A stretch of 64,000 bases of DNA from Euonymus europaeus (taxonomy: Eukaryota > Streptophyta > Magnoliopsida > Celastrales > Celastraceae), in the NCBI GenBank assembly GCA_963580455.1, contig OY756970.1, positions 13,578,001 through 13,642,000 on the forward strand, read 5' to 3'. A model generated the notes under the pieces. It ran no database searches, had not been told where the DNA came from, and saw only the letters and a list, made by a program, of their open reading frames with translations. Made by a program: the position numbers and the translations under genes. Of this stretch, positions 14,370 through 63,283 are shown in pieces (positions within the stretch are counted from its first letter, which is position 1; each line of letters opens with the position of its first letter).

Positions 14370-14370
14370 A

Positions 14371-14805: not shown

Positions 14806-14860
14806 ATAATTCTTTCCAAAATTCTTTTTCAAACTGATCAAGTCCAGTTATGACTTGACT

Positions 14861-15237: not shown

Positions 15238-15245
15238 TATAAAAG
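15238..15245 (+). promoter_or_regulatory. TATA box of EPRV promoter
   Basis: TATAAAAG, copy of the box at 9729 displaced by 5509 bp. Confidence 0.75.
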
Positions 15246-15559
15246 AGACCACCTATGCCTTAGTTGTTCATCTTTTGGCTCTTACAAATCTTTTGGTTCT
15301 TAGACATCTTTGGCATGGAACTTAGAATTCTCTCAACCTCTCTTCTCTCAAAACCTTCCTCTCTTATCAAAAACGGGAACTACAGAGTTCCCTCCTCTCA
15401 ATGTAAGCTACAAGCAGGCATTCAAAAGTCTGTAAGTTTATCTTGTTTAATACTTGCAGCTTTTGAATGCGCTCAATAATATCTATGGCTGGTTTAACCG
15501 CCTTTATTGTTTAATTGTTCATATATTGTTTATCTTATGGCTGGTTCTTTTGTTAAATT
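15246..15559 (+). other. EPRV leader remnant lacking the primer binding site
   Basis: Carries the same deletion as 9737-10050. Hairpin arms are at 15418-15428 and 15460-15470. The primer binding site and ORF1 ATG are absent. Confidence 0.85.
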
Positions 15560-19885: not shown

Positions 19886-19893
19886 AGTTTAAA

Positions 19894-27077: not shown

Positions 27078-27309
27078 GATTAAGAGGCTACCTTTACAAT
27101 GATTAAAATAAATGCTAAAAGTTGAATAGTGGAACTTGAATAGTAGTCAATGTCTCCCACTTTTGAAATGATGCTCCACTTTTCATGATAAATGTTGCTT
27201 TTATGGAAAAGCAATAACCTTGTCTTCTTATCCATAATGTCTTAATGTTTCATGCTTCAACCCAAAAGGGCATAATGGTATTTTTAGCAAAATACCCAGC
27301 TTTCAACGG

Positions 27310-27480
27310 ATTTGTCATTTTCTTTACCACCGACCGTTTGAGATGGAATAGCTAAGTCTATTAACCCAGACTCAGTTAGGTACCTTGTAGGATTTTTGAG
27401 CTTTTGAGTAAAGCTTCCAACTATCAACGGATTTGGTTATTTCTTTACCACCTACCGTTTGGGGTGGAATAGTCAAGCCG
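27310..27480. repeat. 121-bp promoter-upstream repeat, minus orientation
   Basis: Two blocks with the CCACC..GGTGG palindrome and CCGTTTGAGATGGAATAG-type core in reverse orientation, between the component B stop codon and the TATA box. Confidence 0.8.
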
Positions 27481-27493
27481 TAACTGGGCATGA

Positions 27494-29987
27494 TCAGTTA
27501 TCTTCCTCAAGAAGATCATCGGAGTTGAAACTCCTAGAAGATTTCTTGGAAGATTGCGTAGACTGTCCTTTTAATTCAGATAAGGTTTTTTGAAGAAGAT
27601 GAGCAAGTTCATCTTCAGATGTGGCTGAAATTAATTTGGAAATGATAAAAGATTTCATCCCAAGTAAATGGTGTTCAGACTTTTGAATCTGTTTGGTTTT
27701 GGCATCATTAGATGAGAACCATTTAAGTACATTATCAGGGTAGGCTCTTGTAGCATCGAACTTGTCCCACCATTTGGTTCGATAAATTCGGACTAAATAT
27801 GATAAGCTTGCAGGGTCATCATGAAATTGATATTGCCAATTTGTGATCCATGAGATGGCAAAGAGGGAGAAAAAATATAATAAAGGTGGTATGGCCATGT
27901 TCTGGGGTTGATAACGAGATCTGAAAACATCAAATCCTTCTCTGACAATGGAGGGTAAAATTTCTTGGAGGGGTCTGAAGTGCCACCACCATTCGTTAAA
28001 CCAATTGGGAAAATGATAAGTTTGATTGACTTTAAATTGAAAGAACCATGAATGTCTCTGTTCAGAGTTTTGAATTAAAAAAGCTTTGGTCCAAGCTTCC
28101 TGATAATCCCAATAAGAAAACCCTGCAGGGTTGTAGTTAACTGAAAATTGTTTTAGAGAATGTAACTCTTGTCCCCACATTGCTGGGGTTAAAACCTTTA
28201 AAATCATAATAGTGCAATGTGTAAGAACAGAATCTGGATTATGATACTTCTTCATGGAAATTGAATCAGTATCAATTAATATAAATTCATAAAATTTTTG
28301 GTTCTTGTTTAAATCTTGTGGCAGGAAATGCCAATTTGGAGGAAAGACTTTAGAGACCACAATTCTTGGATCTTTACTCTGAAATTCAGTTTCCATAAGA
28401 ACAACCTCTTGATAAATTTGTTTATCAAAATATTTGGATACTAAAATAAAAGGTTGCGTTTGATTTTGTGATAAAGCCATATTGGCAGCAGTTTTTAAAA
28501 CAGGCTCAGAAATAATTAAAGCTGAACTAATGGGTGGTTTTTGTGCCTGGATTGCTAAAGCAACCTCAGGGGTTTTCTGTAAAGATGAAACCCATTCTAA
28601 AAGGGAAGGATTGTTTAAAATCTCTTGAGGAATTGGGGTTTGGGGTTGAGGATCAGAAATTACCTCCTTACCTTTTGATCTTGTAAGAGCTAACTTCTGA
28701 TCTTCTTCATCAGCAATGTCGGCCCATGATTTCTTTGGGAGGATTGGTGTTGTATCTAAAGCATAAGATTCTTTTGAAAGTCTCTGCATTTGTTATCTTG
28801 TTGTTGGTGGAGACATTCTTCCTCGTCCTCTTCTAGAGGAAGTGCTCATGGTTGCTGTAATAAGATGATGAAGTGAACATCTATTTATAGAAGAAGTTAG
28901 TCTCTTTGATGTTTGTTGGATAAAAGGAAAAAATATATTTTTCTCAGATAAAGCTGTAGAAAGACCATCATGACTTACATGAAATGGTTTGATAAGATCA
29001 AGGAAAGGTGTCCCTAAGATAACATATTTTGTAATATTTTGTATACCCAAAAAATCTAAAGTAAAAGAGGCATTGGATTTGCTTATTTTTGCATTGGATA
29101 CTTTGTAAAGAATCTTAAGTTGTTCTCCTGCTACAGTTTTCATGCCTTCAATTGTGTTTTCCCAATAATGATAAGGAACTAAATCAGAACGAAGGCAATT
29201 TAAATCTGCACCTGAATCTACTAAGGCAATAGTATCAAAAGAATAAGAGTCACAAATAATAATAGTTATTTTGATAAACCATTTTTGACCAATAACTTGA
29301 GATAATAAACCTAAGAAGGGTCGATCATTTTTATAAGAACTTTCAACTAGAATTCCTTCTGTTTCTATCTTTCGTATGCGTTCATCTTCTTCTAAGTCAC
29401 TAGGTGTCTCAGATGTCGTCATTAAACCTTTTCCTTTTTCGATAATGGAGACTAGTTGATTTATTTTCATACGGTCATTCTTTTGCTGGTTCCTAAGGCT
29501 GTTAAGTTTGATTTTTATTGTAGAAATCTCTATTTGGGGATGTTGAATATCAGGTTTAAAAGAAGGTTCTATGCTTTGATCATGTTTAGATAAAATTTCT
29601 TTCAGATTATAAGTTGCTTTAGGAGGAGCAATCTTATTATCGCAATGAAATAAAGTTTGTTTTAATTTGTCTAAATAAGCTAATTTAACAGTAGAATCAT
29701 CAATATGATTAACAACGTCTAAAAGGAATTCTTGATCCCTAGAAAGCATGTTAATTTCAGGATCAGAAGATGAAGAAGGAATATCATCATAATGGTTTTC
29801 ATCATCAGATAAAGATAAAGATGAATCATCATCAGTGTCTAAAAGAATTAAATCTAACTTCGCAATAATCTTGTCATCTAGTTCTAATTCATTAATCCTT
29901 TGACGAACGTTACAATACCGGGCAAAATGTCCTGGTTTATTGCATTTGTAACAGGTTGGGGTTTTAGGTTTGTCAGGTTGAGGATTA
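27494..29987 (-). pseudogene. EPRV component B polyprotein, 3' half (CCHC, protease, C-terminal domain)
   Basis: Starts in the CCHC knuckle region (about 29909-29950, CYKCNKPGHFARYC), then an acidic and coiled-coil spacer, the protease (DSGADLN), then an Arg/Gly-rich segment (SSRRGRGRMS) leading to a domain of about 400 residues ending SDDLLEEDN. That domain contains an NEWWWHF motif and a hydrophobic stretch (LLYFFSLFAISWITNWQ). No RT or RNase H follows the protease, and the stop at 27494-27496 is followed directly by the promoter repeats. A single TAA near 28794-28796 separates protease from the C-terminal domain, where sister copies have TCA. This is the most complete C-terminal domain in the window. 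The upstream capsid region is missing. Confidence 0.85.
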
Positions 29988-30794
29988 GACATCTTTGGCT
30001 TGGAACTTAGAATTCTCTCAACCTCTCCTCTCTCAAAACCTTCCCCTCTTATCAAAAACGGGAACTACAGAGTTCCCTCCTCTCAATGTAAGCTACAAGC
30101 AGGCATTCAAAAGTCTGTAAGTTTATCTTGTTTAATACTTGCAACTTTTGAATGCATTCAATAATATCCATGGCTGGTTTAACCGCCTTTATTGTTTAAT
30201 TGCTCATATATTGTTCATCTTATGGCTGGTTATACCGCCTCTCTTATTGTTTTATTTATGTCTTACTTCGACGGCGCCACAAACAGTCAGCTCTGTCGCC
30301 TATGGTTATAAAGCCCAGAAGTTCTTTATGTTCTTTTATTCATCATTTATTTTATAATGCTTGATATTGCAATTGCTTTAGCATTGTTAAATTTATTTAT
30401 GTTCTTGTTCTTGCTTTATTTAATTTTATGTTTATAAATCTCTGTTCTTCTTCCTCCACTTCTTTGTTATAATCAAGCCGACTCAGGACGATTAAGTCTG
30501 TCGAGTCCAATTTATATATTGAGTTTAGTGAGGCTCTGTGAAGATCGCAAGCTTTAACTCGTTAACTAAATCGAATAGCTTAGTTTCTTCCCTGCTTGCA
30601 TGATCCTTCCCGTTATGGTATCAGAGGTTGGGGCAAGTGGTTGTATATTAAGAGACTTATGGTTGATTGCATACCATGCTAATGCTTTGTGGAAACCAAG
30701 GACAAAAGGGGGCCAGTAAGGGGCGACGGACAGCACGGTAAGTGCCAGCGCGATATCCTTGGTAAAGCATCCAAGTTTAGGGTATTAATCAAAC
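29988..30794 (+). other. EPRV leader, plus strand, promoter missing
   Basis: Joined at about 29988 to minus-strand component B DNA through a short shared TTAGA. Contains hairpin arms 30103-30113 and 30145-30155 and primer binding site 30616-30627. The TATA box is not included, so this copy has no viral promoter of its own in plus orientation. Confidence 0.85.
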
Positions 30795-45607: not shown

Positions 45608-46420
45608 GTTTGATTAATACCCTCAACTTGATGCTTTACCAAGGATATCGCGCTGACACTTACTAGGCTGTCCGTCGCCCCTTACTGGCCCCCTTTTGTC
45701 CTTGGTTTCCACAAAGCATTAGCATGGTATGCAATCAACCATAAGTCCCTTAATATACAACCACTTGCCCCAACCTCTGATACCATAACGGGAAGGATCA
45801 TGCAAGCAGGGAAGAAACAAAGCTATTCGATTCAGTTAACGAGTTGAAGCTTGTGATCTTCACAGAGCCTCACTAAACTCAATATATAAATTGGACTCGA
45901 CAGACTTAATCGTCCTGAGTCGCCTTGATTATAACAAAGAAGTGGAGGAGGAAGAACATAGATTTATAAACATAAAATTAAATAAAGCAAGAACAAGAAC
46001 ATAAATAAATTTAACAATGCTAAAGCAATTGCAATATCAAGCATTATAAATTTTATGTTTATAAATCTCTGTTCTTCTTCCTCCATTTCTTTGTTATAAT
46101 CAAGGCAACTCATGACGATTAAGTCTGTTGAGTCCAATTTATATATTGAGTTTAGTGAGGCTCTGTGAAGATCACAAGCTTCAACTCGTTAACTGAATCG
46201 AATAGCTTAGTTTCTTCCCTGCTTGCATGATCCTTCCCGTTATGGTATCAGAGGTTGGGGCAAGTGGTTGTATATTAAGGGACTTATGGTTGATTGCATA
46301 CCATGCTAATGCTTTGTGGAAACCAAGGACAAAAGGGGGCCAGTAAGGGGCGACAGACAGCCCGGTAAGTGCCAGCGCGATATCCTTGGTAAAGCATCAA
46401 GTTGAGGGTATTAATCAAAC
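45608..46420. other. Back-to-back EPRV leaders at the centre of the inverted repeat
   Basis: Minus-strand leader (45608-46048, primer binding site 45774-45785) meets plus-strand leader (46049-46420, primer binding site 46243-46254). The 69 bases 45980-46048 belong to the minus leader only and form the loop. Neither has its TATA box within this interval. Confidence 0.88.
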
Positions 46421-49400
46421 ATGAGTTCTCTTTTTAGATCAACTTCTACCTCTTCAACTATATCAGACGATAGAATCGTCAATCAAGAAGAAATTAATCT
46501 TGAAGATTTAGTTAGGGACGTTGATGATTGGGATATTCCCCGAGTTGAAATAAACAAAATATATAAAAAGGAATCCAGATTTAATATCCTAAGTCGTAAT
46601 GATTATACGATTAAAACTGAAGAAAGAGATATTAAACTGTTTAAGTCATATGAAACCATTACTTTTAGTTCTAGATGACATTCAGTTGATTTACAAAAAT
46701 TCAATCGTAGTTCGTCCACTTCATCCTTTAGATCAGAGTCAGGAATCCTTCCTAGAAATTCCTTCTCTACTCCAAGTACTTCTTTTAAAACAAAAAATCA
46801 ATTTTCATCCACTCCGAGCACTTCTTATCATCCTGATTTAAGTGGAGTTAATCATTCTGGTTCAATACCAAAACCATTTTACAATGTTCAACAGCCAGAA
46901 TCCCAAAACAGTTCCACCGAAGAGCCAATGTCACCAACTTATTTTCAAATGGTTGATAATAATGACCTAGAGTTAAATGTTCTTATTTGTGATAATTTCG
47001 TTATCGACAAACAATCATTACAAAAAGATTTTTATTCTTCTCAAAATACAGCCAAAAGAGACTGGTTCCTCAGTCATTATGCAGGTGAGAAAAGACAGTC
47101 TATTCAAAACCGATATTATGATTTTCTCGAACAAATACAAAAACAACTGCCATTCTTTGAATACTTTGAGTTAGACAGTGATGACCCCAGCATTGATTGG
47201 GCATCTTATCCTTTTACTCCAAAACCTCAAAAGCTTCAAAATCTTCCAAATTTTCCAAAACTTTAGATTCCTCCATCAATGCTCCAACCAGGGTTCAGAC
47301 CTGGAATGAGGGTACTCAACAATCCATTCTTAAGTCCGAACGTCCGTCATTAACTAAAGCTAAACCTCCCACGAAGGACATTAGTTTCCAAACAGCAATT
47401 GATCAGAAAATACAAGCTCTTCACATTGATCTACATCAATCCTCTTGTCAGAAAAATAAATCCTTAGGAACCTCAACAATCCATAATTTTGATAAAGTAA
47501 AAAAATCTTCTAATAACCTTATACAAAGCTCTGGTTCTTCTTCTGAAAACAATGATAAATCTCAGGATAAAAGAATTACTTGTAAACATTGTAATAAATC
47601 TAATCATTGGACACGATACTGTCGTGTTCGAAAAAGGATTAAAAAATTACAATTAGATCAAGAATTAATGACGAAAATAGACTTAACTTTAAACGATACA
47701 GATGAGTCATCAGATGATGAAAATATTAAAATAGAACCTCATAATCATATATCTTCTGTTACAGAGATTACCATGAAAACTCCAAACCCTAGCATTAAAA
47801 CACTTCAACAGGATATTGCTAAACTTAAAACCGAAATCAAAAATATGAAACAAGAAAAAGATTCAAAGGAAAATAAGGAACAACCTTGCCTTAGATTACT
47901 GTCTCAAGTTACTAGCCAAAAATGGTTTATCAAAATTGCACTAGAAATCCAAAAATCATTCTCTTTTGATACAATAGCCTTAGTTGACTCTGGAGCTGAT
48001 TTAAATTGTCTTTGTTCAGATTTAGTTCCTCGTCCTTATTGGGAAAACACAATGGAAGGAATCAAATCAGCCGCAGGAGAACAACTTAAGATTCTTTATA
48101 AATTATCTGATGTTACAATCACAAACAAAGATGTTACTCTCAAAACTAGTTTCTTAGGTATTCAAAACATTACAAAGTATGTTATTCTAGGAACCCCATT
48201 CCTTGAGTTACTCAAACCATTCAAAATTAGTAATCATGGGATTCATACTAGGATTATAGGAAATAAAATTATTTTTCCTTTCATACAACAACCTATCACA
48301 AAAAATATCCACATTTTAGCACAAAATTTTGTTTATGAAGATTCTATAAATTGCTTCATTGAAAATAAAGAAAAACAAATTGAACACCTTTCTGATAAGA
48401 TTGTTATCTCCCAGATTGATCAACAATTATCAACAACAGAAACAAAAGAAAAAATAGAATCCCTCCAAAGTATCTTTGAAAAAGATGTCTGTTCTGACCT
48501 TCCTACTGCCTTCTGGGATAGGAAGAAACATGTTGTCCAATTACCTTATGAAAAAGATTTCCAAGAAATTAATATTCCCACAAAAGCCAGAGGAATACAA
48601 ATGAACAAAGAATTAGAAGAACACTGTAGAAAAGAAATTCAAGATCTTTTAGATAAGAAACTAATTAGACACAGTCAGTCTCCTTGGAGTTGTGCTGCTT
48701 TTTATGTTAATAAGAATGCTGAAATTGAACGAGGAGTTCCTCGACTTGTTATCAATTATAAACCTTTAAACAAAACCCTCCAATGGATTCGTTATCCAAT
48801 TCCTAATAAAAAAGATTTACTAGCTAAATTATACGATGCTAAAATCTTTTCAAAGTTTGATATGAAATCTGGTTTCTGGCAAATCCAGATCCAGGAACAA
48901 GATAGGTACAAGACTGCATTCACTGTCCCATTTGGACAGTACGAATGGAATGTTATGCCTTTTGGTTTAAAGAATGCACCTTCTGAATTTCAGAAAATTA
49001 TGAATGATATTTTTAATCCTTATTCTCAATTCTTAATTGTGTACATTGATGATGTTTTGATATTTTCTCATAATATCAAACAACATTTTTATCATCTCTT
49101 TAAGTTTCTCAAGATCATTAAAGACAATGGTTTGGTTGTGTCCAAAACAAAGATTAAATTATTTCAAACAAATATTCGATTTCTTGGTCATAATATTCAT
49201 CAGGGTACTATTATACCAATTGAACAATCCATCAATTTCGTTGACAAGTTTCCAGACAAAATATTAGATAAAACTCAGTTACAACGATTCTTGGGAAGTT
49301 TAAATTATATTGCTGATTTTTATCCTAACCTTCAAAAATTATGCAAACCTTTACATGACAGGTTAAAGAAGAATCCCCCTCCTTGGACGGATACTCATAC

Positions 49401-49863
49401 TTCTATAATCCAAAGGATCAAGGCTTATCTTCCCACATTACCTTGTTTATGTATTCCTGATCCTACTGCTTTTAAGATTGTTGAAACAGATGCTTCTGAA
49501 ATTGGTTATGGTGGTATTCTTAAACAATTGAAAAATGATAAAGAGGAAATTATACAATTTACCTCCAAGAAATGGAATCCTACCCAACAAAATTATTCTA
49601 CAATTAAAAAGGAAATTTTATCTATTGTTTTATGCATTTCAAAGTTTCAAGGTGATTTATTAAATCAAAACTTTTTAGTTCGTGTTGATTGTAAATCTGC
49701 AAAAGAGGTTTTACAAAAAGATGTCCAAAACATAGCCTCCAAACAGATTTTCGCTAGATGGCAAGCTATTCTTAGTGTTTTTGATTTTGATATTGAACAC
49801 ATTGCAGGTAAAGATAATAATTTACCAGATTTCTTAACACGTGAATTCTTGCAGGATCGATAA
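46421..49863 (+). pseudogene. EPRV component A ORF1, nearly complete apart from MP core
   Basis: ATG at 46421. N-terminal region, 579-nt in-frame MP-core deletion, TGA at 46676-46678, one-base deletion near 47224, then an unbroken frame to 49863. That frame holds CCHC (about 47580-47622), a basic and acidic spacer, protease (DSGADLN, near 47989-48003), RT (KSGFWQ, YIDD near 49042-49053) and RNase H (VETDAS). It is the longest uninterrupted enzyme-coding stretch in the window, with conserved catalytic residues visible. No capsid core lies between linker and CCHC, as in all A copies. The right arm of the inverted repeat covers the first half. Confidence 0.93.
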
Positions 49864-49940
49864 TACATTATCCAAAAGTGAGCAGTATCAAAGGAAAATT
49901 TCTCAGTAAGCTGGTTAAGGTTATCTCTTTTACCTTTGTT

Positions 49941-50189
49941 ATGTATCCATTTGAATTAAAACGACTGGTAAACAGACTTAACCATCTTAAAACTGATCTT
50001 ACATAATAAAATAAAAGGTTATCTATTCAGATTATCAGGTGGCACATTGCTCATCCTTATCAACAGGCTCCCCCTGTTTGGATTTCTCAAAATCGTGCTG
50101 ATATTATCGAAAACAAACATATTATTAATTTATTGACCCTACAAGTCAATTCATTTCAGAGTGAATTAGAAATTATCTCTCGAATTTAA
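49941..50189 (+). pseudogene. EPRV ORF2, full-length with two adjacent stops
   Basis: Starts MYPFELKRLV, like the copy at 19637. Two consecutive stop codons (50004-50009) replace a Gln-Glu pair after residue 21. The remaining frame to TAA at 50187-50189 has the long form without the 69-nt deletion. Confidence 0.62.
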
Positions 50190-50197
50190 AGTTTAAA

Positions 50198-50641
50198 ATG
50201 GCTTCTGATTCACTTAAATATATTTTAGCAAGATTTTCAACTCCCATATTTTCAAATGATTTCTGTCCCAAAAAACCCAGTTACGTTTATCTTGAACTCG
50301 AGAAACATCAAATTAATGTTGTTCTTCATTCTTGGGATGATTGGGAAGAATGTTGGGCATACCCTATCTTAAATGCTGACAATGTTAAAATCGAATGTTT
50401 GCGTATTTTCCATTATTTTGACTTACCTTATGATTTGCGCAAAAACATTCTTCAAATCGCACTCTTCTCTCAAATACGTGATCAGATTTTATTTGATCTT
50501 ATTACTGATCATGTTCACGATTTTATCAATCAATTTATTGAAGAAGAAGAAGCTTTAGAAAATAATGATTCCATCGATAGTATGGAAGAATTTTGGGATG
50601 AATTTGAAGATGAACCCGATGCATGGGTAGATGAGTTTTAA
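50198..50641 (+). CDS. EPRV ORF3, intact (147 aa)
   Basis: Nine bases after the ORF2 stop, start MASDSLKYIL. Nearly identical to the ORF3 at 42475, including the IDS insertion in the acidic tail. A few substitutions (for example PSYVYLE, EKHQIN). No recognised domain. Confidence 0.62.
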   Translation: MASDSLKYILARFSTPIFSNDFCPKKPSYVYLELEKHQINVVLHSWDDWEECWAYPILNADNVKIECLRIFHYFDLPYDLRKNILQIALFSQIRDQILFDLITDHVHDFINQFIEEEEALENNDSIDSMEEFWDEFEDEPDAWVDEF

Positions 50642-50694
50642 ATGATTTTAAGAAATTCATCTCAAACCTGATCATGCCCAGTTATGGCTTGGCT

Positions 50695-50970
50695 ATTCCA
50701 CCTTTAACGGTAGGTGGTAAAGAAATAACCAAATCCGTTGAAAGTTGGAAGCTTTACTCAAAAGCTCAAAAAACCTACAAGGTGCCTAACTAAGTCTGGG
50801 TTAATCGACTTAGCTATTCCACCTCAAACGGTAGGTGGTAAAGAATTAACCAAATCCGTTGAAAGTTGGAGGTTTTACTCAAAAACCCAAAAATCCTATA
50901 AGGTACCTAACTAAGTCTGGGTTAATCGACTTAGCTATTCCACCTTAAACGGTCGGTGGTAAAGAAAATG
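50695..50970. repeat. 121-bp promoter-upstream repeats, about 2.3 copies
   Basis: Blocks start at 50695, 50816 and 50937, exactly 121 bp apart. Same repeat number as at 4400. Confidence 0.88.
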
Positions 50971-51192
50971 GCAAATCCGTTGACAGCTGGGTATTTGCTA
51001 AAAATACCATTTTACCCTTTCGGGTCCAAACATGAAACATGAAGACATTATGGACAAAAAGACAAGGTTATTGCTTTTCCATAAAAGCACCATTATCAAA
51101 AGTGGAACATCATTTCAAAAGGTGGGAGACATTGACCACTATTCAAGTTCCACTATTTAACTTTTTATCATTGTAAAGGTGATCTCTTAATC

Positions 51193-51200
51193 TATAAAAG
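51193..51200 (+). promoter_or_regulatory. TATA box of EPRV promoter (upstream of component B)
   Basis: TATAAAAG in the conserved block. The component B copy that follows uses the same promoter and leader sequence as component A copies. Confidence 0.75.
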
Positions 51201-52087
51201 AGACCACCTATGCCTTAGTTTATGATCTTTTGGCTCTTACAAATCTTTTGGCACTTAGACATCTTGAGCTTGGAGCTTTGTTTTGGTTCCAACATAGAAT
51301 TCTCTCAACCTCTCTTCTCTCAAAACCTTCCTCTCTTATCGAAAACGGGAACTACAGAGTTCCCTCCTCTCAATGTAAGCTACAAGCAGGCATTGAAAAG
51401 TCTGTAAGTTATCTTGTTTAATACTTGCAGCTTTTGAATGCATTCAATAATATCTATGGCTGGTTTAACCGCCTTTATTGTTTAATTGCTCATATATTGT
51501 TCATCTTATGGCTGGTTCTACCGCCTCTCTTATTGTTTTATTTATGTCTTGCTTCGACGGCGCCACAAACGGTTGGCTCTGCCGCCTGTGGTTATAAAGC
51601 CCAGAAGATCTTCATGTTCTTTTGTTCTTTTATTCATCATTTATTTTATAATGCTTGATATAGCAATTGCTTTAGCATTGTTAAATTTATTTATGTTCTT
51701 GTTCTTGCTTTACTTAATTTTATGTTTATAAATCTTTGTTCTTCTTCCTCCATTTCTTTGTTATAATCAAGGCGACTCAGGACGATTAAGTTTGTCGAGC
51801 CCAATTTATATATTGAGTTTAGTGAGGCTCTGTGAGGATCACAAGCTTCAACTCGTTAACTAAATCGAATAGCTTAGTTTCTTCAGTGCTTGCATGATCC
51901 TTCCCGTTATGGTATCAGAGGTTGGGGCAAGTGGTTGTATATTAAGGGACTTATGGTTGATTGCATACCATGCTAATGCTTTGTGGAAACCAAGGACAAA
52001 AGGGGGCCAGTAAGGGGCGACGGACAGCCCGGTAAGTGCCAGCGCGATACCCTTGGTAAAGCATCAAGTTGAGGGTATTAATCAAAC
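51201..52087 (+). other. EPRV leader with primer binding site
   Basis: Full leader: hairpin arms 51390-51400 and 51431-51441 (one mismatch), primer binding site 51910-51921, then the conserved GGACAAAAGGGGGCCAGTAA region and ORF1. Sister to the leaders of component A. Confidence 0.85.
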
Positions 52088-55000
52088 ATGAGTTCTCTTT
52101 TTAGATCAACTTCTACCTCTTCAACTATATCAGACGATAGAATCGTCAATCAAGGAGAAATTAATCTTGAAGATTTAGTTAGGGACGTTGATGATTGGGA
52201 TATTCCCCGAGTTGAAATAAACAAAATATATAAAAAGGAATCCAGATTTAATATCCTAAGTCGTAATGATTATACGATTAAAACTGAAGAAAGAGATATT
52301 AAACTGTTTAAGTCATATGAAACCATTACTTTTAGTTCTAGACGATATTCAGTTGATTTACAAAAATTCAATCGTAGTTCGGCCACTTCATCCTTTAGAT
52401 CAGAGTCAGGAATCCTTCCTAGAAATTCCTTCTCTACTCCAAGTACTTCTTTTAAAACAAAAAATCAATTTTCATCCACTCCGAGCACTTCTTATCATCC
52501 TGATTTAAGTGGAGTTAATCATTCTGGTTCAATACCAAAACCATTTTACAATGTTCAACAACCAGAATCCCAAACCAGTTCCACCCAAGAACCAATGTCA
52601 CCAACTTATTCTCAAATGGTTGATAATAATGACCCAGAGTTAAATGTTCTTATCTGTGATAATTTTGTTATTGACAAACAATCATTACAAAAAGATTTTT
52701 ATTCTTCTCAAAATACAGCCAAAAGAGACTGGTTCCTCAGTCATTATGCAGGTGAGAAAAGACAGTCTATTCAAAATCGATATTATGATTTTCTCGAACT
52801 AATACAAAAACAAATGCCGTTCTTTGAATACTTTGAGTTAGACAGTGATGACCCCAGCATTGATTGGGCATCTTATCCTTATACTCCAAAAGCCTCAAAA
52901 GCTTCAAAATCTTCCAAATCTTCCAAATCTTTCGATTCCTCCATCAATGTTACAACTAGGGTTCAGACTTGGTATGACAATACTCAGAAAAATGTGGTTG
53001 CATCTGACCATCCACCTTTAACCCAGCTTAAGTTAGATTATAAGAATTCTTCTGTGATTGCTACACCATTTAAAGTATCCAAAGCTGAGGAGTTCAAAGG
53101 CATTGTAGAACAAAATAATTTTACGAACCAACATCTGTCCACAATTGGTCAGCAGTTAACTAGGATTGAAGATTATGTTCAAAAGCCAACCATTACAAAG
53201 AATTCTGACAAACCAATGTTTAAACCCTATGAGATACCCCCCAAATTAGCAAAAACGTTAGCTCCTCAAGATTCTGATTTCATGACTGCCATAGAGAGAA
53301 AATTACAAGATATTAAAGAAAGTAAATTACAGGAACTTACTGCCACTTTAACACAATTCCCCTCCTTACAAATTCCTGAAACTCCTACGTCATCTACAAC
53401 TCCAGGTGTCAATAATCTTGATAAAAATAGAGATACTCCATCCAATTCTGATTTTGACATCAATAAAATGACATGGCAAGCTCCTCAAAAACTTTATTAT
53501 TCTAAAACCACTCAACCAGATATTTTGTTAGAAGAAAAACAAACCAACCAAATGAAATATAATGCTGATACCATTTATGAATGGAATATAGATGGTATGT
53601 CCGATTATAATATCCTTAATTTATTACAACAAATGACGATGGTCAGCAATGCTTACAAAACAAAAACAGATACAACTGACCAGGCTATTGCAAACATAAT
53701 TATTGCTGGTTTTACAGGACAGTTAAAAGAATGGTGGGATTACCATCTTACATCTGCTCAACAAAATGAAATGCTTAATGCTGTTAAAACTGCTTCTGAT
53801 GGTACAGTTATCAAAATAGAATTAGGCGTCGAAATCTAGGATTCAGTTGCCACACTTATCTTTTCAATATCCAAACATTTCTTAGGAGATCCATCCAGTA
53901 TTAGAGATAGGTCTTCTGAACTCTTAGCCAATTTAAGATGCCAAAAACTCCATGATTTTCGCCAATACAAAGATACCTTCTTAACCAGAGTTATGATGCG
54001 GCCCGACAACAACCAACTTTTTTGGAAAGAAAAATTCTTAGCAGGACTCCCAATCTTATTAGGTGATAAGGTACGTGAAAAGATTAAATCTTTACACAAC
54101 AATCAAATTCCTTATGATCAGTTAACCTATGGTGATCTAGTGAATCACATTCAGAAAGTAGGTTTACAATTATGTTCTGACATTAAGTTACAGAAACAGT
54201 TAAAATATGAAAAAACCAAATCTAGAAATGAACTAGGTTCTTTCTGTAAACATTTTGGTTTCGAAGAAAATTGTTCTAAACCAAAAGATTCCCCTTCTAA
54301 GAAAACTTCTTATTCCAAAAAGCCTTATTATTCTAGATCAAATTATCGTTCCCGATTTTATAAAAATCCTTTTACACCAAAGTCATCTCAAGGGAAGAAA
54401 GACGGCCCCAAACCAAAATCTAATCCTCAACCTGACAAACCTAAAACCCCAACCTGTTAGAAATGCAATAAACCAGGACATTTTGCCAGGTATTGTAAAG
54501 TTCGTCAAAGGATTAATGAATTAGAACTAGATGACAAGATTATTGCGAAGTTAGATTTAATTCTTTTAGACACTGATGATGATTCATCTTTATCTTTATC
54601 TGATGATGAAAACCATTATGATGATATTCCTTCTTCATCTTCTGATCCTGAAATTAACATGCTTTCTAGAGATCAAGAATATCTTTTAGACGTTGTTAAT
54701 CATATTGATGATTCTATTGTTAAATTAGCTTATTTAGACAAATTAAAACAAACTTTATTTCATTGCGATAATAAGATTGCTCCTCCTAAAGCAACTTATA
54801 ATCTGAAAGAAATTTTATCTAAACATGATCAAAGCATAGAACCTTCTTTTAAACCTGATATTCAATATCTCCAGATAGAGATTTCTGCAATAAAAATCGA
54901 ACTTAACAGCCTTAGGAACCAGCAAAAGAATGACCGTATGAAAATAAATCAACTAGTCTCCATTATCGAAAAAGGAAAAGGTTTAATGACGACATCTGAG

Positions 55001-56878
55001 ACACCTAGTGACTCAGAAGAAGATGAACGCATACGAAAGATAGAAACAGAAGGAATTCTAGTTGAAAGTTCTTATAAAAATGATCAACCCTTCTTAGGTT
55101 TATTATCTCAAGTTATTGGTCAAAAATGGTTTATCAAAATAACTATTATTATTTGTGATTCTTATTCTTTTGATACTATTGCCTTAGTAGATTCAGGTGC
55201 AGATTTAAATTGCCTTCGTTCTGATTTAGTTCCTTATCATTATTGGGAAAACACAATTGAAGGCATGAAAACTGCAGCAGAAGAACAACTTAAGATTCTC
55301 TACAAAGTATCCAATGCAAAAATAAGCAAATCCAATGCTTCTTTTACTTTAGATTTTTTGGGTGTACAAAATATTACAAAATATGTTATCTTAGGGACAC
55401 CTTTCCTGGATCTTATCAAACCATTTCATGTAAGTCATGATGGTCTTTCTACAACTTTATCTGGGAAAAATATATTTTTTCCTTTTATCCAACAAACATC
55501 AAAAGGACTAACTTCTTCTATAAATAGATGTTCACTTCATCATCTTATTACAGCAACCATGAGCACTTCCTCTAGAAGAGGACGAGGGAGAATGTCTCCA
55601 CCAACAACAAGATCACAAATGCAGAGACTTTCCAAAGAATCTTATGCTTTAGATACAGCACCAATCCTCCCAAAGAAATCATGGGCCGACATTGCTGACG
55701 AAGAAGATCAGAAGATAGCTCTTCCCAAAACAAGATCAAAAGGTAAGGAGGTAATCTCTGTTTCTGATCCTCAACCCCAAACCCCAATTCCCCAAGAGAT
55801 TTTAAACAATCCTTCCCTTTTAGAATGGGTTTCATCTTTACAAGAAACCCCTGAGGATGCTTTAGCAATCCAGGCACAAAAACCACCCATTAGTTCAGCT
55901 TTAATTATTTCTGAGCCTGTTTTAAAAACTGCTGCCAATATGGCTTTATCCCAAAATTAAACGCAACCTTTTACTTATGTATCCAAATATTTTGACAAAC
56001 AGATTTATCAAAAGGTTGTTCTTATGGAAACTGAATTTCATAGTAAAGATCCAAGAACTGTGGTCTCTAAAGTCTTTCCTCCAAATTGGCATTTCATGCC
56101 ACAAGATTTAAACAAAGATCAAAAATTTTATGAATTTATATTGATTGATACTGATTCAATTTCCATGAAAAAGTATCATAATCCAGATTCTGTTCTTACA
56201 CATTGCACTGTTATGATTTTAAAGGTTTTAACCCCAGCAATGTGGGGACAACAGTTACATGACACAAAACAATTTTCAGTAAATTTTAAACCTTCGAGAT
56301 TTTCTTACTGGGATTACCAAGAAGCTTGGACAAAAGCCTTTTTAGTTCCTTCCTCTGAGCAAAGGCACTCATGGTTTTTCCAATTCAAAGTTAATCAAAC
56401 TTATCATTTTCCCAATTGGTTTAACGAATGGTGGTGGCACTTCGGACCCCTCCAAGAAATTTTGCCCTCAATTGTCCGTGAAGGATTTGATGTTTTCAGA
56501 TCTCGTTATCAACCCCAGAACATGGCCATACCACCTTTATTATATTTTTTCTCCCTCTTTGCCATCTCATGGATCACAAATTGGCAATATCAACTTCATG
56601 ATGAATCTGCAAGCTTATCATATTTAGTCCGAATTTATCGAACCAAATGGTAGGACAAGTTTGATGCTACAAGAGCCTACCCTGATAATGTGCTTAAATG
56701 GTTCTCATCTAATGATGCCAAAACTAAACAGATTGAACACCATTTACTGGGAATGAAATCCTTTATCAGTTCCAAATTAATTTCAGCCACATCTGAAGAT
56801 GAACTTGCTCACCTTCTTCTAGGAGTTTCAACTCTGATGATCTTCTTGACGAAGATAACTGATCAAGTCCAGTTATGA
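52088..56878 (+). pseudogene. EPRV component B polyprotein: MP remnant, capsid, CCHC, protease, C-terminal domain; no RT
   Basis: One frame from the ATG at 52088 with only four nonsense codons (53837, 54458, 55958, 56651) and no frameshift until a small deletion near 56822. Order: MP N-terminus with the 579-nt core deletion; RDWFLSHYAG linker; a component B-specific linker (VQTWYDNTQK); a capsid core (about 53460-54250, with TGQLKEWWDYHLT and FWKEKFLAGLP motifs); a Lys/Ser/Tyr-rich basic stretch; CCHC knuckle (54455-54496, one codon now TAG); protease (DSGADLN at 55190); then an Arg/Gly-rich hinge (SSRRGRGRMS) and a C-terminal domain of about 400 residues with NEWWWHF. The promoter repeats follow at once, leaving no room for RT or RNase H. 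Capsid assignment rests on position before the CCHC and the gag-like W motif. Confidence 0.88.
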
Positions 56879-56885
56879 CTTGACT

Positions 56886-57055
56886 ATTCCACCTCAAACG
56901 GTAGGTGGTAAAGAATTACCCAAATCCGTTGAAAGTTGGAGGTTTTACTCAAAAACCCAAAAATCCTACAAGGTACCTAACTAAGACTGGGTTAATCGAC
57001 TTAGCTATTCCACCTCAAACGGTCGGTGGTAAAGAAAATAACAAATCCGTTGATA
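56886..57055. repeat. 121-bp promoter-upstream repeat, 1.4 copies
   Basis: Blocks start at 56886 and 57006 (120 bp apart). Component B carries the same repeat family as component A. Confidence 0.85.
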
Positions 57056-57262
57056 GCTGGGTATTTGCTAAAAATACCATTTTACCCTTTCGGGTCCAAA
57101 CATGACACATGAAGACATTATGGACAAAAGGACAAGGTTATTGCTTTTCCATAAAAGCACCATTATCAAAAGTGGAACATCATTTCAAAAGGTGGGAGAC
57201 ATTGACCACTATTCAAGTTCCACTATTTAACTTTTTATCATTGTAAAGGTGATCTCTTAATC

Positions 57263-57270
57263 TATAAAAG
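57263..57270 (+). promoter_or_regulatory. TATA box of EPRV promoter
   Basis: TATAAAAG in the conserved context, upstream of the recombinant copy. Confidence 0.75.
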
Positions 57271-58114
57271 AGACCACCTATGCCTTAGTTTATCATCTTT
57301 TGGTTCTTAGACATCTTTGGCTTGGAACTTAGAATTCTCTCAACCTCTCTTCTCTAAAAACCTTCCTCTCTTATCAAAAACGGGAACTACAGAGTTCCCT
57401 CCTCTCAATGTAAGCTACAAGCAGGCATTCAAAAGTCTGTAAGTTTATCTTGTTTCTTACTTACAGATTTTGAATGCATTCAATAATATCCATGGCTGGT
57501 TTAACCGCCTTTATTGTTTAATTGTTCATATATTGTTCATCTTATGGCTGGTTCTACCGCCTCTGTTATTGTTTTATTTATGTCTTGCTTCGACGGCGCC
57601 ACAAACGGTCGGCTCTGCCGCCTGTGGTTATAAAGCCCAGAAGTTTTTATGTTCTTTTGTTCATCATTTATTTTATAATGCTTGATATTGCAATTGCTTT
57701 AGCATTGTTAAATTTATTTATGTTCTTGTTCTTGCTTTACTTAATTTTATGTTTATAGATCTCTGTTCTTCTTCCTCCATTTCTTTGTTATAATCAAGGC
57801 GACTCAGGACGATTAAGTCTGTCGAGTCCAATTTATATATTGAGTTTAGTGAGGCTCTGTGAAGATCACAAGCTTCAACTCGTTAACTGAATCGAATAGC
57901 TTAGTTTCTTCCCTGCTTGCATGATCCTTCCCGTTATGGTATCAGAGGTTGGGGCAAGTGGTTGTATATTAAGGGACTTATGGTTGATTGCATACCATGC
58001 TAATGCTTTGTGGAAACTAAGGACAAAAGGGGGCCAGTAAGGGGCGACGGACAGCCCAGTAAGTGCCAGCGCGATATCCTTGGTAAAGCATCAAGTTGAG
58101 GGTATTAATCAAAT
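57271..58114 (+). other. EPRV leader with primer binding site
   Basis: Hairpin arms 57425-57435 and 57467-57477 (one mismatch; the acceptor-like site here reads TTACTTACAG). Primer binding site 57937-57948. Slightly shorter than other leaders because of a small deletion just after the TATA box. Confidence 0.85.
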
Positions 58115-61100
58115 ATGAGTTCTCTTTTTAGATCAACTTCTACCTCTTCAACTATATCAGAGGATAGAATCGTCAATCAAGAAGAAATTAATTTTGAAGA
58201 TTTAGTTAGGGACATTGATGATTGGGATATTCCCCGAGTTGAAATAAACAAAATATATAAAAAGGAATCCAGATTTAATATCCTAAGTCGTAATGATTAT
58301 ACGATTAAAACTGAAGAAAGAGATATTAAACTGTTTAAGTCATATGAAACCATTAAGCTTCTAAACTAGAAATCGTTAGAAAAACATAAGCAAAGTATAA
58401 CTATCTTCATATTGGATTAGTTCAGATTGGGATTAAACCATTAACTCGTGAAGGTTTAGATACATCGATTCTTTTATGTTTATGTGATTGTAGAATGTTA
58501 GAATTCAATGATTCACTCTTAGGTACAGTTGAAACTAGCCTCTGCAGTGGTCCAATTTATTTTGATTGTTACCCGAATTTTACAGTTTCATTAAGTGATC
58601 AAAACCTTTTAGATGCACTCACTCTTAACATCAAAACTCACAATTATAAGATGTCTTCAGGATCTCTTCCAATTTCTTTAATCTACAGGATTCATTATAA
58701 AGCTATGTCTTCAGCTTTTGTATCCAAAGCCTTAAGAAAATCTCCCAAAGGAGAAACCTTATTAATTCAAACTGACATTGCCAGATCCAATATGACTCTT
58801 CCACGCACAATTAAGTGGGATGAGATTACCTTACCCACAACATGGGAGTTACAAGGGGCTGTACCTCCAAAGAAAATAGAAAACACAAACATAGAACAAG
58901 TTACTCAATCCAGCGATGGAAAAGTAGAAATTACTTTTAGTTCTAGACAACATTCAATTGATTTACAAAAATTCAATCGTAGTTCATCCACTTCATCTTT
59001 TAGATCTGAGCCACGAATCCCTCCTCGAAATTCCTTCTCTACTCCAAGCACTTCTTATAAAACAAAAAATCAATTTTCATCCAATCCAAGTACTTCTTAT
59101 CATCCTGATTTAAGTGGAGTTAATCATTCTGGTTCAAAACCAAAACCATTTTATAATGTTCAACAGCCAGAATCCCAAACCAGTTCCACCCAAGAACCAA
59201 TGTCACCAACTTATTCTCAAATGATTGATAATAATGACCCAGAGTTAATTGTTCTTATCTGTGATAATTTCGTTATCGACAAACAATCATTACAAAAAGA
59301 TTTTTATTCTTCTCAAAACACAGCCAAAAGAGACTGGTTCCTCAGTCATTATGCAGGTGAGAAAAGACAGTCTATTCAAAATCGATATTATGATTTTCTC
59401 GAACTAATACAAAAACAACTGCCATTCTTTGAATACTTTGAGTTAGACAGTGATGACCCCAGCATTGATTGGGCATCTTATCCTTTTACTCCAAAAGCCT
59501 CAAAAGCTTCAAAATCTTCAAAATCTTCCAAATTTTCCAAAACTTTAGATTCCTCCATCAATGCTCCAACCAAGGTTCAGACCTGGAATGAGGGTACTCA
59601 GCAATCCATTCTTATGTCCGAACGTCCGTCATTAACTAAAGCTAAATCTTCTACGAGGGACATTAGTTTCCAAACAGCAATTGATCAAAAAATACAAGCT
59701 CTTCACATTGATCTACATCAATCCTCTTGTCAGAAAAATAAATCCTTAGGAACCTCAACAATTCATAATTTAGATAAAGTAAAAAAATCTTCTAATAACC
59801 TTATACAAAGCTCTGGTTCTTCTTCTGAAAACAATGATAAATCTCAGGATAAAAGAATTACTTGTAAACATTGTAATAAATCTAATCATTGGACACGATA
59901 CTGTCGTGTTCAAAAAAGGATTAAAAAATTACAATTAGATCAAGAATTAATGACGAAAATAGACTTAACTTTAAACGATACAGATGAGTCATCAGATGAC
60001 GAAAATATTAAAATAGAACCTCATAATCATACATCTTCTGTTACAGAGATTACCATGAAAACTCCAAAACCCTAGCATTAAAACACTTCAACAGGATATT
60101 GCTAAACTTAAAACCGAAATCAAAAATATGAAACAAGAAAAAGATTCAAAGGTAAATAAGGAACAACCTTGCCTTAGATTACAGTCTCAAGTTATTGGTC
60201 AAAAATGGTTTATCAAAATAACTATTATTATTTGTGACTCTTATTCTTTTGATACTATTGCCTTAGTAGATTCAGGTGCAGATTTAAATTGCCTTCGTTC
60301 TGATTTAGTTCCTTATCATTATTGGGAAAACACAATTGAAGGCAATAAAACTGCAGCAGAAGAACAACTTAAGATTCTCTACAAAGTATCCAATGCAAAA
60401 ATAAGCAAATCCAATGCTTCTTTTACTTTAGATTTTTTGGGTGTACAAAATATTACAAAATATGTTATCTTAGGGACACCTTTCCTTGATCTTATCAAAC
60501 CATTTCATGTAAGTCATGATGGTCTTTCTACAGCTTTATCTGGGAAAAATATATTTTTTCCTTTTATCCAACAAACATCAAAAGGACTAACTTCTTCTAT
60601 AAATAGATGTTCACTTCATCATCTTATTACAGCAACCATGAGCACTTCCTCTAGAAGAGGACGAGGGAGAATGTCTCCACAAACAACCAGATCACAAATG
60701 CAGAGACTTTCAAAAGAATCTTATGCTTTAGATACAGCACCAATCCTCCCAAAGAAATCATGGGCCGACATTGCTGATGAAGAAGATCAGAAGATAGCTC
60801 TTGCCAAAACAAGATCAAAAGGTAAGGAGGTAATTTCTGATCCTCAACCCCAAACCCCAATTCCTCAAGAGATTTTAAACAATCCTTCCCTTTTAGAATG
60901 GGTTTCATCTTTACAAAAAACCCCTGAGGTTGCTTTAGCAATCCAGGCACAAAAACCACCCATTAGTTCAGCTTTAATTATTTCCGAGCCTGTTTTAAAA
61001 ACAGCTGCCAATATGGCTTTATCACAAAATCAAACACAACCTTTTACTTATGTATCCAAATATTTTGATAAACAGATTTATCAAAAGGTTGTACTTATGG

Positions 61101-61998
61101 AAACTGAATTTCACGGTAAAGACCCAAGAACTGTGGTCTCTAAAGTTTTTCCTCCAAATTGGCATTTCATGCCGCAAGATTTAAACAAGAACAAAAATTT
61201 TTATGAATTAATATTAATTGATACTGATTCAATTTCCATGAAGAAGTATCATAACCAAGATTCTGTTCTTACACATTGCACTGTTATGATTTTAAAGGTT
61301 TTAACCCCAGCAATGTGGGGACAAGAGTTACATTCTCCAAAACAATTTTCAGTTAACTACAACCCTGCAGGATTTTCTTATTGGGATTATCAGGAAGCTT
61401 GGACCAAAGCTTTTTTAATTCAAAACTCTGAACAGAGACATTCATAGTTCTTTTAATTTAAAGTCAATCAAACTTATCATTTTCCCAATTGGTTTAATGA
61501 ATGGTGGTGGCACTTCGGACCCCTCCAAGAAATTTTACCCTCAATTGTCCGAGAAGGATTTGATGTTTTCAGATCCCGTTATCAACCCCAGAACATGTCC
61601 ATACCACCTTTATTATACTTTTTCTCAATCTTTGCCATCTCGTGGATCACAAATTGGCAATATCAATTTCATGATGACTATGCAAGTTTATCATATTTAG
61701 TCTGAATTTATCGAACCAAATGGCGGGACAAGTTTGATGCCACAAGAGCCTACCCTGATAATGTACTTAAATGGTTCTCATCTAATGATGCCAAAACCAA
61801 ACAGATTCAAAAATCTGAACACCATTTACTTGGGATGAAATCCTTTATCAGTTCCAAATTAATTTCAGCTACATCTGAAGATGAACTTTCTCATCTTCTT
61901 CAAAAAACCTTATCTGAATTAAAAGGACAGTCTACGCAATCTTCCAAGAAAACTTCTAGGAGTTTCAACTCCAATGATCTTCTTGAGGAAGATAACTG
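58115..61998 (+). pseudogene. EPRV A/B recombinant ORF1 lacking both capsid and RT
   Basis: ATG at 58115. Retains the movement-protein core (58351-58932) that most copies have lost, but with TAG at 58367-58369 and a 2-base deletion near 58392. From 58495 the frame is open through the component A-type linker and CCHC (CKHCNKSNHWTRYC, about 59869-59910) until an extra A near 60064. At about 60190, in the SQV..GQKWF motif shared by both types, the sequence switches to component B protease and C-terminal domain. Stops at 61445-61447 and later ones break the C-terminal domain, which ends with the typical EEDN at 61998. The product would have MP, CCHC and protease but neither capsid core nor RT. 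Confidence 0.9.
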
Positions 61999-62021
61999 AT
62001 CATGCCCAGTTACGGCTTGAC

Positions 62022-62190
62022 TATTCCACCTCAAACGGTAGGTGGTAAAGAAATAACTAAATCCGTTGATAGTTGGAAGCTTTACTCAAAAGCTCAAAAA
62101 TCCTACAAGGTACCTAACTGAGTCTGGGTTAATAGACTTAGCTATTCCACCTCAAATGGTCGGTGGTAAAAAAATGACAAATCCGTTGAA
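62022..62190. repeat. 121-bp promoter-upstream repeat, 1.4 copies
   Basis: Blocks start at 62022 and 62144 (122 bp). This copy is more diverged from the others and resembles the minus-strand one at 27310. Confidence 0.82.
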
Positions 62191-62413
62191 AGCTGGGTAT
62201 TTGCTATAAATACCATTATGCCCTTTCGGGTTGAAGCTTGAAACATGAAGACATTATGGATAAGAAGACAAGGTTATTGCTTTTCCATAAAAGCAACATT
62301 TATCATGAAAAGTGGAGCATCATTTCAAAAGTGGGAGACATTGACCACTATTCAAGTTCCACTATTCAACTTTTAGCATTTATTTTAATCATTGTAAAGA
62401 TAGCCTCTTAATC

Positions 62414-62421
62414 TATAAAAG
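62414..62421 (+). promoter_or_regulatory. TATA box of EPRV promoter
   Basis: TATAAAAG in the conserved context, preceded by a diverged upstream region. Confidence 0.72.
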
Positions 62422-63283
62422 AGACCACCTATGCCTTAGTTACAAATCTTTTGGCTCTTACAAATCTTTTGGTTCTTAGACATCTTTGGCTTGGAAATTA
62501 GAAATCTCTCAACCTCTCCTCTCTCAAAACCTTCCCCTCTTATCAAAAACGGGAATTATAGAGTTCCCTCCTCTCAATGTAAGCTACAAGCAGGCATTCA
62601 AAAGTCTGTAAGTTTATCTTGTTTCTTACTTACAGATTTTGAATGCATTCAATAATATCCATGGCTGGTTTAACCGCCTTTATTGTTTAATTGTTCATAT
62701 ATTGTTCATCTTATGGCTGGTTCTACCGCCTCTGTTATTGTTTTATTTATGTCTTGCTTCGACGGCGCCACAAACGGTCGGCTCTGCCGCCTGTGGTTAT
62801 AAAGCCCAGAAGTTTTTATGTTCTTTTGTTCATCATTTATTTTATAATGCTTGATATTGCAATTGCTTTAGCATTGTTAAATTTATTTATGTTCTTGTTC
62901 TTGCTTTACTTAATTTTATGTTTATAGATCTCTGTTCTTCTTCCTCCATTTCTTTGTTATAATCAAGGCGACTCAGGACGATTAAGTCTGTCGAGTCCAA
63001 TTTATATATTGAGTTTAGTGAGGCTCTGTGAAGATCACAAGCTTCAACTCGTTAACTGAATCGAATAGCTTAGTTTCTTCCTTGCTTGCATGATCCTTCC
63101 TGTTATGGTATCAGAGGTTGGGGCAAGTGGTTGTATATTAAGGGACTTATGGTTGATTGCATACCATGCTAATGCTTTGTGGAAACCAAGGACAAAAGGG
63201 GGCCAGTAAGGGGCGACGGACAGCCCAGTAAGTGCCAGCGCGATATCCTTGGTAAAGCATCAAGTTGAGGGTATTAATCAAAC
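62422..63283 (+). other. EPRV leader with primer binding site
   Basis: Hairpin arms 62594-62604 and 62636-62646 (one mismatch) and primer binding site 63106-63117. The downstream part is almost identical to the leader at 57271. Confidence 0.85.

What the first reader, a model, noticed from the sequence alone, without database searches (positions are those of the whole stretch)
52088..56878. RT-less companion genome: a bipartite pararetrovirus, both components at one locus
Component B has promoter, leader, PBS, MP N-terminus, capsid core, CCHC and protease, then a novel C-terminal domain and the next promoter, with no RT or RNase H. Component A (for example 46421-50641) has RT and RNase H plus ORF2 and ORF3 but no capsid core. 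Three loci (27494-29987, 52088-56878, 58115-61998) carry the B 3' end, always followed by the same promoter repeats, so it is a genome type and not a single deletion. A bipartite organisation has been reported for some florendoviruses; finding both parts sharing cis elements and interleaved in one array is the most informative feature here.
Basis: partly seen in the sequence, partly recalled or inferred. Interest (0 to 1): 0.88.

Follow-up and report, generated by a model that had tools for sequence, protein, structure and literature searches.

The report
Two-part fossil plant virus genome
This stretch of what is most likely a plant chromosome holds fossils of a virus whose genome seems to have been split into two parts, one with the copying enzyme and one with the shell protein, a rare layout already reported from a few other plants.

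Summary
The observation largely holds and the bipartite reading is well supported. Component B (51741-57768) is a genome type: 46 B-like coat matches lie on 13 contigs, and in 20 of 20 read in context no reverse transcriptase (RT) of this virus follows. Conversely 0 of 44 RT matches of the A type has a coat at the distance where 44 of 72 RT matches of single-part relatives in the same genome have one. A and B share leader and movement-protein DNA at about 95% identity, but their proteases are 73% alike and separate cleanly (12 A, 22 B). Two diverged lineages carry their own matched A/B pair; A-only and B-only genes evolved under purifying selection.

Corrections: of the three loci only 52088-56878 has a capsid; 58115-61998 is an A/B chimera, 27494-29987 a 5'-truncated B. 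The cut movement protein is a deletion of these copies. The "novel" C-terminal domain resembles the 397-aa second ORF of a single-part relative.

Bipartite florendoviruses were published in 2014 (grape, rice, sorghum), so the kind is known. New here: parallel A/B lineages, an ORF2-like domain found only in B, and an A gene shared with a dispersed repeat. Rooting of the protease tree stays open.

The parts
51741..52087 (+). leader with primer-binding site in front of B
52088..52345 (+). B: movement protein N-terminus (core deleted in this copy)
52667..52876 (+). B: DUF7588 domain, still in the A/B common region
52952..53521 (+). B-specific region 1 (its first 40 or so residues still occur in some A units)
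53522..53836 (+). B: DUF7746 domain
   Evidence: (E 3.5e-33)
53840..54457 (+). B: Caulimovirus coat domain PF22909 and basic tail
   Evidence: (E 9.9e-16)
54461..55060 (+). B: CCHC zinc knuckle and acidic linker
   Evidence: for the copy at 28793-30064
55070..55450 (+). B: aspartic protease, 73% nt identity to the A protease
55466..56818 (+). B: C-terminal domain; its later part is homologous to ORF2 of a single-part relative (L039)
56884..57333 (+). 121-nt repeats and promoter after B
46074..51320 (+). component A unit: leader, MP (core deleted), DUF7588, CCHC, protease, RT, RNase H, small ORFs, repeats, promoter
10048..15348 (+). A unit with the MP domain but no leader/PBS in front; tandem copy from 15557
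57768..62495 (+). A/B chimera: A-type 5' part and CCHC, B-type protease, C-terminus and 3' end; no coat
27281..30003 (-). 5'-truncated B: CCHC to 3' repeats, abutting a leader of the opposite strand
14121..14366 (+). A ORF2, 82 aa
14371..14802 (+). A ORF3, about 144 aa, acidic C-terminus

Best explanation
These are chromosomal fossils of a bipartite pararetrovirus that works like the bipartite florendoviruses. Component A (5.7 kb leader to leader here, with its MP deletion) encoded MP, protease, RT and RNase H plus two small proteins. Component B (6.0 kb here; 6.7 kb in L026 and L029, where MP is whole) encoded MP, capsid, protease and an ORF2-like C-terminal domain. Each carries the same promoter, leader and primer-binding site. 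Inferred mechanism: A's RT copied both RNAs in trans, B's capsid packaged both, and template switching in the shared 5' region kept it alike in A and B while the rest diverged. Shown: the anatomy, the shared module, the deep split of the proteases, matched diverged pairs, purifying selection. Inferred: circles, trans-replication, packaging, template switching.
For: Domain order A versus B. 20 coat copies read in context: 0 with RT or RNase H of this virus before the next intergenic region (15 of 20 walks reached one; 5 ended first), 17 with the B C-terminus; 13 RT copies (7 in the window): 0 with coat upstream, 8 of 13 walks reached an intergenic region. Whole genome by coordinates: of 44 A-type RT rows on 13 contigs 0 have any of the 150 coat rows 1.5-2.9 kb upstream, against 44 of 72 rows of the 67-71% class. 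46 B-like coats on 13 contigs, 35 with the C-terminus within 4 kb. A-versus-B nucleotide identity: leader 0.960, MP 0.953, protease 0.732; with chimeras left out and only copies on different contigs, main lineage: leader 0.946 (B-B 0.938), MP 0.956 (B-B 0.948, A-A 0.957), protease 0.731 (B-B 0.944, A-A 0.920). Trees: protease A (12) and B (22) split by one branch 100/100; leader and promoter labels intermixed, MP and DUF7588 too. L031: A and B DUF7588 regions 97% alike, each 76-79% like the window's; L032: 93.5% within, 73-84% to the window's. Intergenic region after A in L020 (C1) is 97% like that after B in L019 (C10), but 91-92% like the window's A. dN/dS between lineages: coat 0.04-0.17, B C-terminus 0.07-0.37, RT 0.03-0.08, A ORF3 0.13-0.27.
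Against: No particle, episome or RNA was seen; all is from integrated copies. The shared 5' region could partly be homogenised in the chromosome: A and B are neighbours in L031, L032 and the window. Over 645 nt the two L031 units are only 88.5% alike. Not every intergenic region follows lineage: three B ones of the C14 array are 97-98% like each other and 90-92% like the window's A ones. With distant outgroups the protease tree does not root between A and B (AU p 0.17 for A as a clade; with L039, p 0.012 against it), though the outgroup branch is very long. 11 of 46 B-like coats lack the B C-terminus within 4 kb; 26 of 46 were not read. The genome lists are capped: 150 of 222 coat and 116 of 5480 RT candidates scored. 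The A linker with CCHC shows weaker constraint (dN/dS 0.36-0.67).
Confidence: 0.82

Rival explanations
1. B (or A) is a satellite or defective derivative of a single-part helper virus, replicated in trans and never essential to it.
For: Single-part relatives with coat, protease, RT and RNase H in one ORF plus a 397-aa ORF2 exist in the same genome (L039; 44 of 72 RT rows of that class have a coat upstream), and chimeras such as 57768-62937 show that recombination products are made.
Against: A lacks a coat as B lacks RT. B-only and A-only genes are under purifying selection between lineages, and the single-part relative read is far away (coat 38%, RT 75% aa).
Confidence: 0.1
2. A and B are one circular genome of about 12 kb with two promoter-leader modules.
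For: A-B and B-A neighbours are common (9 and 10 by coordinates; 6 and 6 in the loci read); in L026 the intergenic regions after A and after B are identical.
Against: A-A (5) and B-B (7) neighbours occur by coordinates. This is weaker than it looks: A-A was seen only in the C14 array, part of it chromosomal duplication; of the B-B cases at least two lead into a chimera, one has an inverted A fragment between (L020), and none was read clean from end to end. In one search the single row counted B-B is a 42-aa stub before an A unit. 8 of 10 leader-to-leader spacings are 5.2-6.7 kb.
Confidence: 0.05
3. A and B are products of rearrangement inside the chromosome, not virus genomes.
For: The window's tandem A units (7.9 kb repeated at 99%) lack leader and PBS and look like chromosomal duplication; inversions and truncations are frequent.
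Against: The same B order recurs on many contigs, with purifying selection between lineages.
Confidence: 0.03

Closest known systems
Bipartite florendoviruses: Vitis vinifera B and D virus, Oryza sativa B virus, Sorghum bicolor virus (Geering et al. 2014, PMC4241990; passages incl. abstract, and section 7 read)
   Same: A without CP but with RT and RH1; B with MP, CP, AP and no RT; B polyprotein with a C-terminal extension; near-identical intergenic region and MP in A and B; compound A+B insertions; 5.5-6.9 kb.
   Different: There B's extension is homologous to A's own ORF2 (more divergent in rice and sorghum) and only RT and the N-terminal part of RH1 are lost from B. Here A has no such ORF2 but two small ORFs without detectable likeness to B's C-terminus, and no RNase H remnant was found in the window's B unit.
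Single-part florendoviruses such as Lotus japonicus A virus (same paper) and the single-part relative L039 in this genome
   Same: Same domains; RT of A 75% aa identical to L039; B C-terminus homologous to L039 ORF2, E 8e-23.
   Different: Coat and RT in one ORF1 there, split over two units here.
Begomovirus DNA-A and DNA-B with their common region (recalled, not from a call)
   Same: Works like it: components share a nearly identical cis-acting region and otherwise differ.
   Different: Unrelated single-stranded DNA viruses; the shared region there does not hold a movement-protein gene (recalled).

Membership tests
Caulimoviridae | MP, coat domain, aspartic protease, RT, RNase H, no integrase; tRNA-primed | tested here: met
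   Pfam MP, Caulimovir_coat_dom, RVP (over cut-off in A, below it in B), RVT_1, RT_RNaseH; no integrase match in the viral pieces scanned; PBS-like motif in leaders (its identity as tRNA-Met site is recalled)
Florendovirus | ORF2 product of 45-58 kDa specific to the genus | tested here: inconclusive
   B C-terminus matches the 397-aa ORF2 of L039; no named florendovirus sequence was on hand
Florendovirus | RT groups in the florendovirus clade | not testable with these tools
   no named reference RTs; A RT is 75% identical to L039 and 47-50% to another lineage, L011-L015
Bipartite florendovirus | A lacks CP, B lacks RT | tested here: met
   0 of 13 RT and 0 of 20 coat copies read are exceptions; 0 of 44 A-type RT rows with a coat 1.5-2.9 kb upstream
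Bipartite florendovirus | intergenic region over 90% and MP over 87% nt identity between A and B | tested here: met
   leader 96.0%, MP 95.3% on average; 94.6% and 95.6% on different contigs without chimeras
Bipartite florendovirus | B C-terminal extension homologous to ORF2 of component A | tested here: not met
   no significant likeness to A's two small ORFs; homologous instead to ORF2 of a single-part relative
Bipartite florendovirus | compound A+B insertions | tested here: met

The most novel reading that the evidence does not exclude
A long-lived bipartite reverse-transcribing virus: the split happened once and was inherited by at least three lineages that each kept a matched A/B pair, held together by exchange in a shared promoter-to-MP module, with the ORF2 function moved wholly to B and A fitted with two small genes, one of which is shared with a dispersed repeat family of the host genome.
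Probability: 0.45. Interest if true: 0.65.

Novelty: new variant of a known kind. Interest (0 to 1): 0.5.

Why it matters
The 2014 paper called bipartite florendoviruses possible unsuccessful attempts of evolution (PMC4241990). Matched A/B pairs in several diverged lineages, with selection on both parts, would show that a divided retro-virus genome can persist, and give the common region as a direct record of how the parts stayed in step.

Tried and rejected
Splicing as the cause of the missing MP core: the junction has 4-nt microhomology and no GT-AG ends. Structure of the B C-terminus: AlphaFold2 on three window copies gave mean pLDDT 36.5, unusable, so no fold search was made. PDB sequence searches with C-terminus and coat: nothing up to E 1. 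Relatives in viral contigs by C-terminus, coat piece and RT: none. Rooting the protease tree by outgroup: not decisive. A sugar-beet report of bipartite forms is known to me only through the review PMC10377300 (passages read); a search for it found nothing and an id tried for it is not held. Rows dropped: RT/RNase H matches under 60% identity (two B loci, L022 and L027, have Ty3-like ones of 25-42% some kb downstream of the coat on the same strand); matches under 55% (A_CCHC excepted) and under 50 codons, whose protease values mix A and B and are not used; chimeras counted as A, taken out.
Full report
What is there. The window lies at C14:13578001-13642000 of an unnamed 443-Mb genome, taken here to be a plant from its pararetroviruses, and holds a mixed array of endogenous pararetrovirus units on both strands. 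Unit 46074-51741 is an A unit: leader, MP, DUF7588, CCHC, protease, RT, RNase H, small ORFs, 121-nt repeats, promoter. Unit 51741-57768 is a B unit: leader, MP N-terminus, DUF7588, DUF7746, coat, CCHC, protease, C-terminal domain, repeats, promoter. Unit 57768-62937 is a chimera, A-type to its CCHC and B-type from the protease on; the minus-strand unit at 27281-30003 is a 5'-truncated B that abuts a leader of the other strand.

B is a genome type. A search with the coat family scored 150 of 222 candidates. 46 rows of 44-64 bits score like B and lie on 13 contigs; 35 of 46 have the B C-terminus 0.5-4 kb downstream on the same strand, and 1 has an A ORF3 within 5.2 kb. That one was read (L016): its coat is cut off and followed by a leader and then an A unit. 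Of the 46, 20 were read in context: 0 of 20 have RT or RNase H of this virus before the next intergenic region (reached in 15), 17 have the C-terminus, the other three are cut short. Of 13 RT copies over 90 aa, 7 of them in the window, 0 have coat or DUF7746 upstream; 8 walks reached an intergenic region. Of 16 B 3' ends 15, and of 17 A ORF3 3' ends 16, are followed by the repeats within 400 nt.

Whole-genome control. The RT search, answered late, scored 116 of 5480 candidates and fell into two classes: 44 rows at 82-100% identity and 72 rows at 67-71%. Of the 44, none has any of the 150 coat rows 1.5-2.9 kb upstream on the same strand (one, the L016 rearrangement, has one at 3.4 kb); of the 72, 44 have one there, none of them a B-like coat. 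So the same test that finds coat and RT together in the single-part relatives finds them apart in this lineage. Both lists are capped.

A and B share one module but are old. Mean nucleotide identity A to B is 0.960 for the leader, 0.953 for MP and 0.924 for DUF7588, against 0.945, 0.947 and 0.899 within B, but 0.732 for the protease (A-A 0.945, B-B 0.906). The A rows there are few, mostly from the C14 array, and include chimeras; with chimeras out and only pairs on different contigs of the main lineage the values are leader 0.946 (B-B 0.938; all five A leaders from the window), MP 0.956 (B-B 0.948), DUF7588 0.906 (B-B 0.904), protease 0.731 (B-B 0.944, A-A 0.920). In trees the protease of A (12 rows) and B (22 rows) lie on two sides of one branch with 100/100 support; leader and promoter labels are intermixed (for A, 41 and 69 of 500 shuffles are as clustered), MP and DUF7588 too.

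Matched lineages. In L031 an A and a B of a diverged lineage lie in tandem: their DUF7588 regions with 150 nt upstream are 97% alike and each is 76-79% like the window lineage; over a longer 645 nt they are 88.5% alike against 75% to the window's A. In L032 the corresponding stretch (232 nt) is 93.5% alike between B and A but 73-84% like the window's, and the intergenic regions after A and after B are 91% alike against 79-87% to all others but L024 (90 and 85%). As these pairs are neighbours, homogenisation inside the chromosome is possible. Against that stands the L019/L020 case: the intergenic region after an A on C1 is 97% like that after a B on C10, but 91-92% like those after the window's A units. 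Not all copies behave so: three B regions of the C14 array (two in the window, one in L030) are 97-98% like each other and 90-92% like the window's A ones. Between lineages mean dN/dS is 0.04-0.17 for the coat (one pair without estimate), 0.06-0.15 for DUF7746, 0.07-0.37 for the C-terminus, 0.03-0.08 for RT and 0.13-0.27 for A ORF3; the A CCHC linker is looser, 0.36-0.67. Both parts therefore worked while the lineages diverged, if the A/B split is older than the lineages. That follows from the unrooted protease tree if the root lies on the A-B branch; with distant outgroups it falls within A instead (AU p 0.17, p 0.012), on branches so long that I do not rely on it. This is a result against my reading and is told as such.

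What the C-terminal domain is. It has no Pfam match even at E 10 and no PDB match up to E 1. In the genome it finds, besides B copies, nine weak matches (31-34% identity, E 1e-20 to 3e-19) in 324-400-aa frames; four of them lie 3.2 kb behind long-frame coats, of 33 such coats tried. One was read in L039: a continuous 1116-aa stretch (cut by the locus; 1845 aa) with coat (E 6e-44), protease (E 7e-29), RT (75% identity to A) and RNase H (67%), then a 397-aa ORF that matches the B C-terminus at E 8e-23. This is the layout described for single-part florendoviruses, ORF1 of 205-216 kDa and ORF2 of 45-58 kDa (PMC4241990, passages). So the B C-terminus is an ORF2-like protein fused to the polyprotein.

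Comparison with print. Geering et al. 2014 (passages and section 7) described components A and B in grape, rice and sorghum with the same division of labour, over 90% intergenic and over 87% MP identity, and compound insertions; a review adds sugar beet (PMC10377300, passages). CAULIFINDER (PMC9719215, passages) reports lower sensitivity for B components. A 2026 paper on caulimovirid origins gave no match for bipartite or multipartite (PMC13308828, find). Eight held papers carry both florendovirus and bipartite (listing); I opened three of these. I saw no report of several matched A/B lineages in one genome, but searched only as. Differences here: A lacks the 45-58 kDa ORF2 and has an 82-aa ORF, found in 15 places of 10 loci at 52-100% identity, and an ORF3 of about 144 aa; neither resembles the B C-terminus; the window's B shows no RNase H remnant.

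Mechanism. Most likely A's RT copied both RNAs from the same primer site and B's coat packaged both, with template switches in the common 5' module; chimeras with the switch in the protease (window 57768-62937 and L017) fit this. These steps are inferred. Array neighbours by coordinates are A-B 9, B-A 10, A-A 5, B-B 7; in the loci read A-B 6, B-A 6 (one into a chimera, one into a fragment), A-A 4, all in the window, no clean B-B, 18 run off. This speaks only mildly against one 12-kb circle. The window's tandem A units lack a leader and are 99% repeats, probably chromosomal.

Odds. The late RT control raised my confidence in the two-part reading from 0.80 to 0.82 and lowered that of the satellite rival; rechecking the B-B neighbours raised the one-circle rival from 0.04 to 0.05. 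Verdict: a real bipartite pararetrovirus fossil of a known kind with variant traits.

Noticed in passing
window 14329-14802; L034:2034-2480, L037:887-1330, L038:856-1299: A ORF3 has 36 further full-length homologues with a uniform 148-aa open frame at 68-75% identity across the genome. Three were read: they sit in a dispersed repeat (L037 and L038 86% alike over 2.7 kb), show no other domain of our set, and L037 is like the window's A only over the ORF. dN/dS to A 0.14-0.19; among the three 0.07, 0.23 and, with few changes, 1.14.
   Followed up: partly
window 57768-62937; L017:7092-9485 onward: A/B chimeras: A-type CCHC with B-type protease, no coat.
   Followed up: partly
window 6027, 25968, 45367, 46661, 52328: One identical deletion of about 575 nt of the MP core, with 4-nt microhomology, in A and B copies of the array.
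   Followed up: partly
window 6668-20050: 7.9-kb tandem duplication at 99% identity of A units, of which those at 10048 and 15557 lack leader and PBS.
   Followed up: no
L011-L015 (contigs C5, C9, C10, some near contig ends): Another pararetrovirus lineage with the best coat scores; RT of 47-50% identity to A on the same strand in 5 of 5 loci, a weak MP match in 3 of 5.
   Followed up: no
L039; 72 RT rows of 67-71%: Many single-part florendovirus-like copies with long open frames (up to 1889 aa) in the same genome.
   Followed up: partly
window 36738-38303, minus strand: Ty3-type element with RT, RNase H and integrase zinc domain.
   Followed up: no
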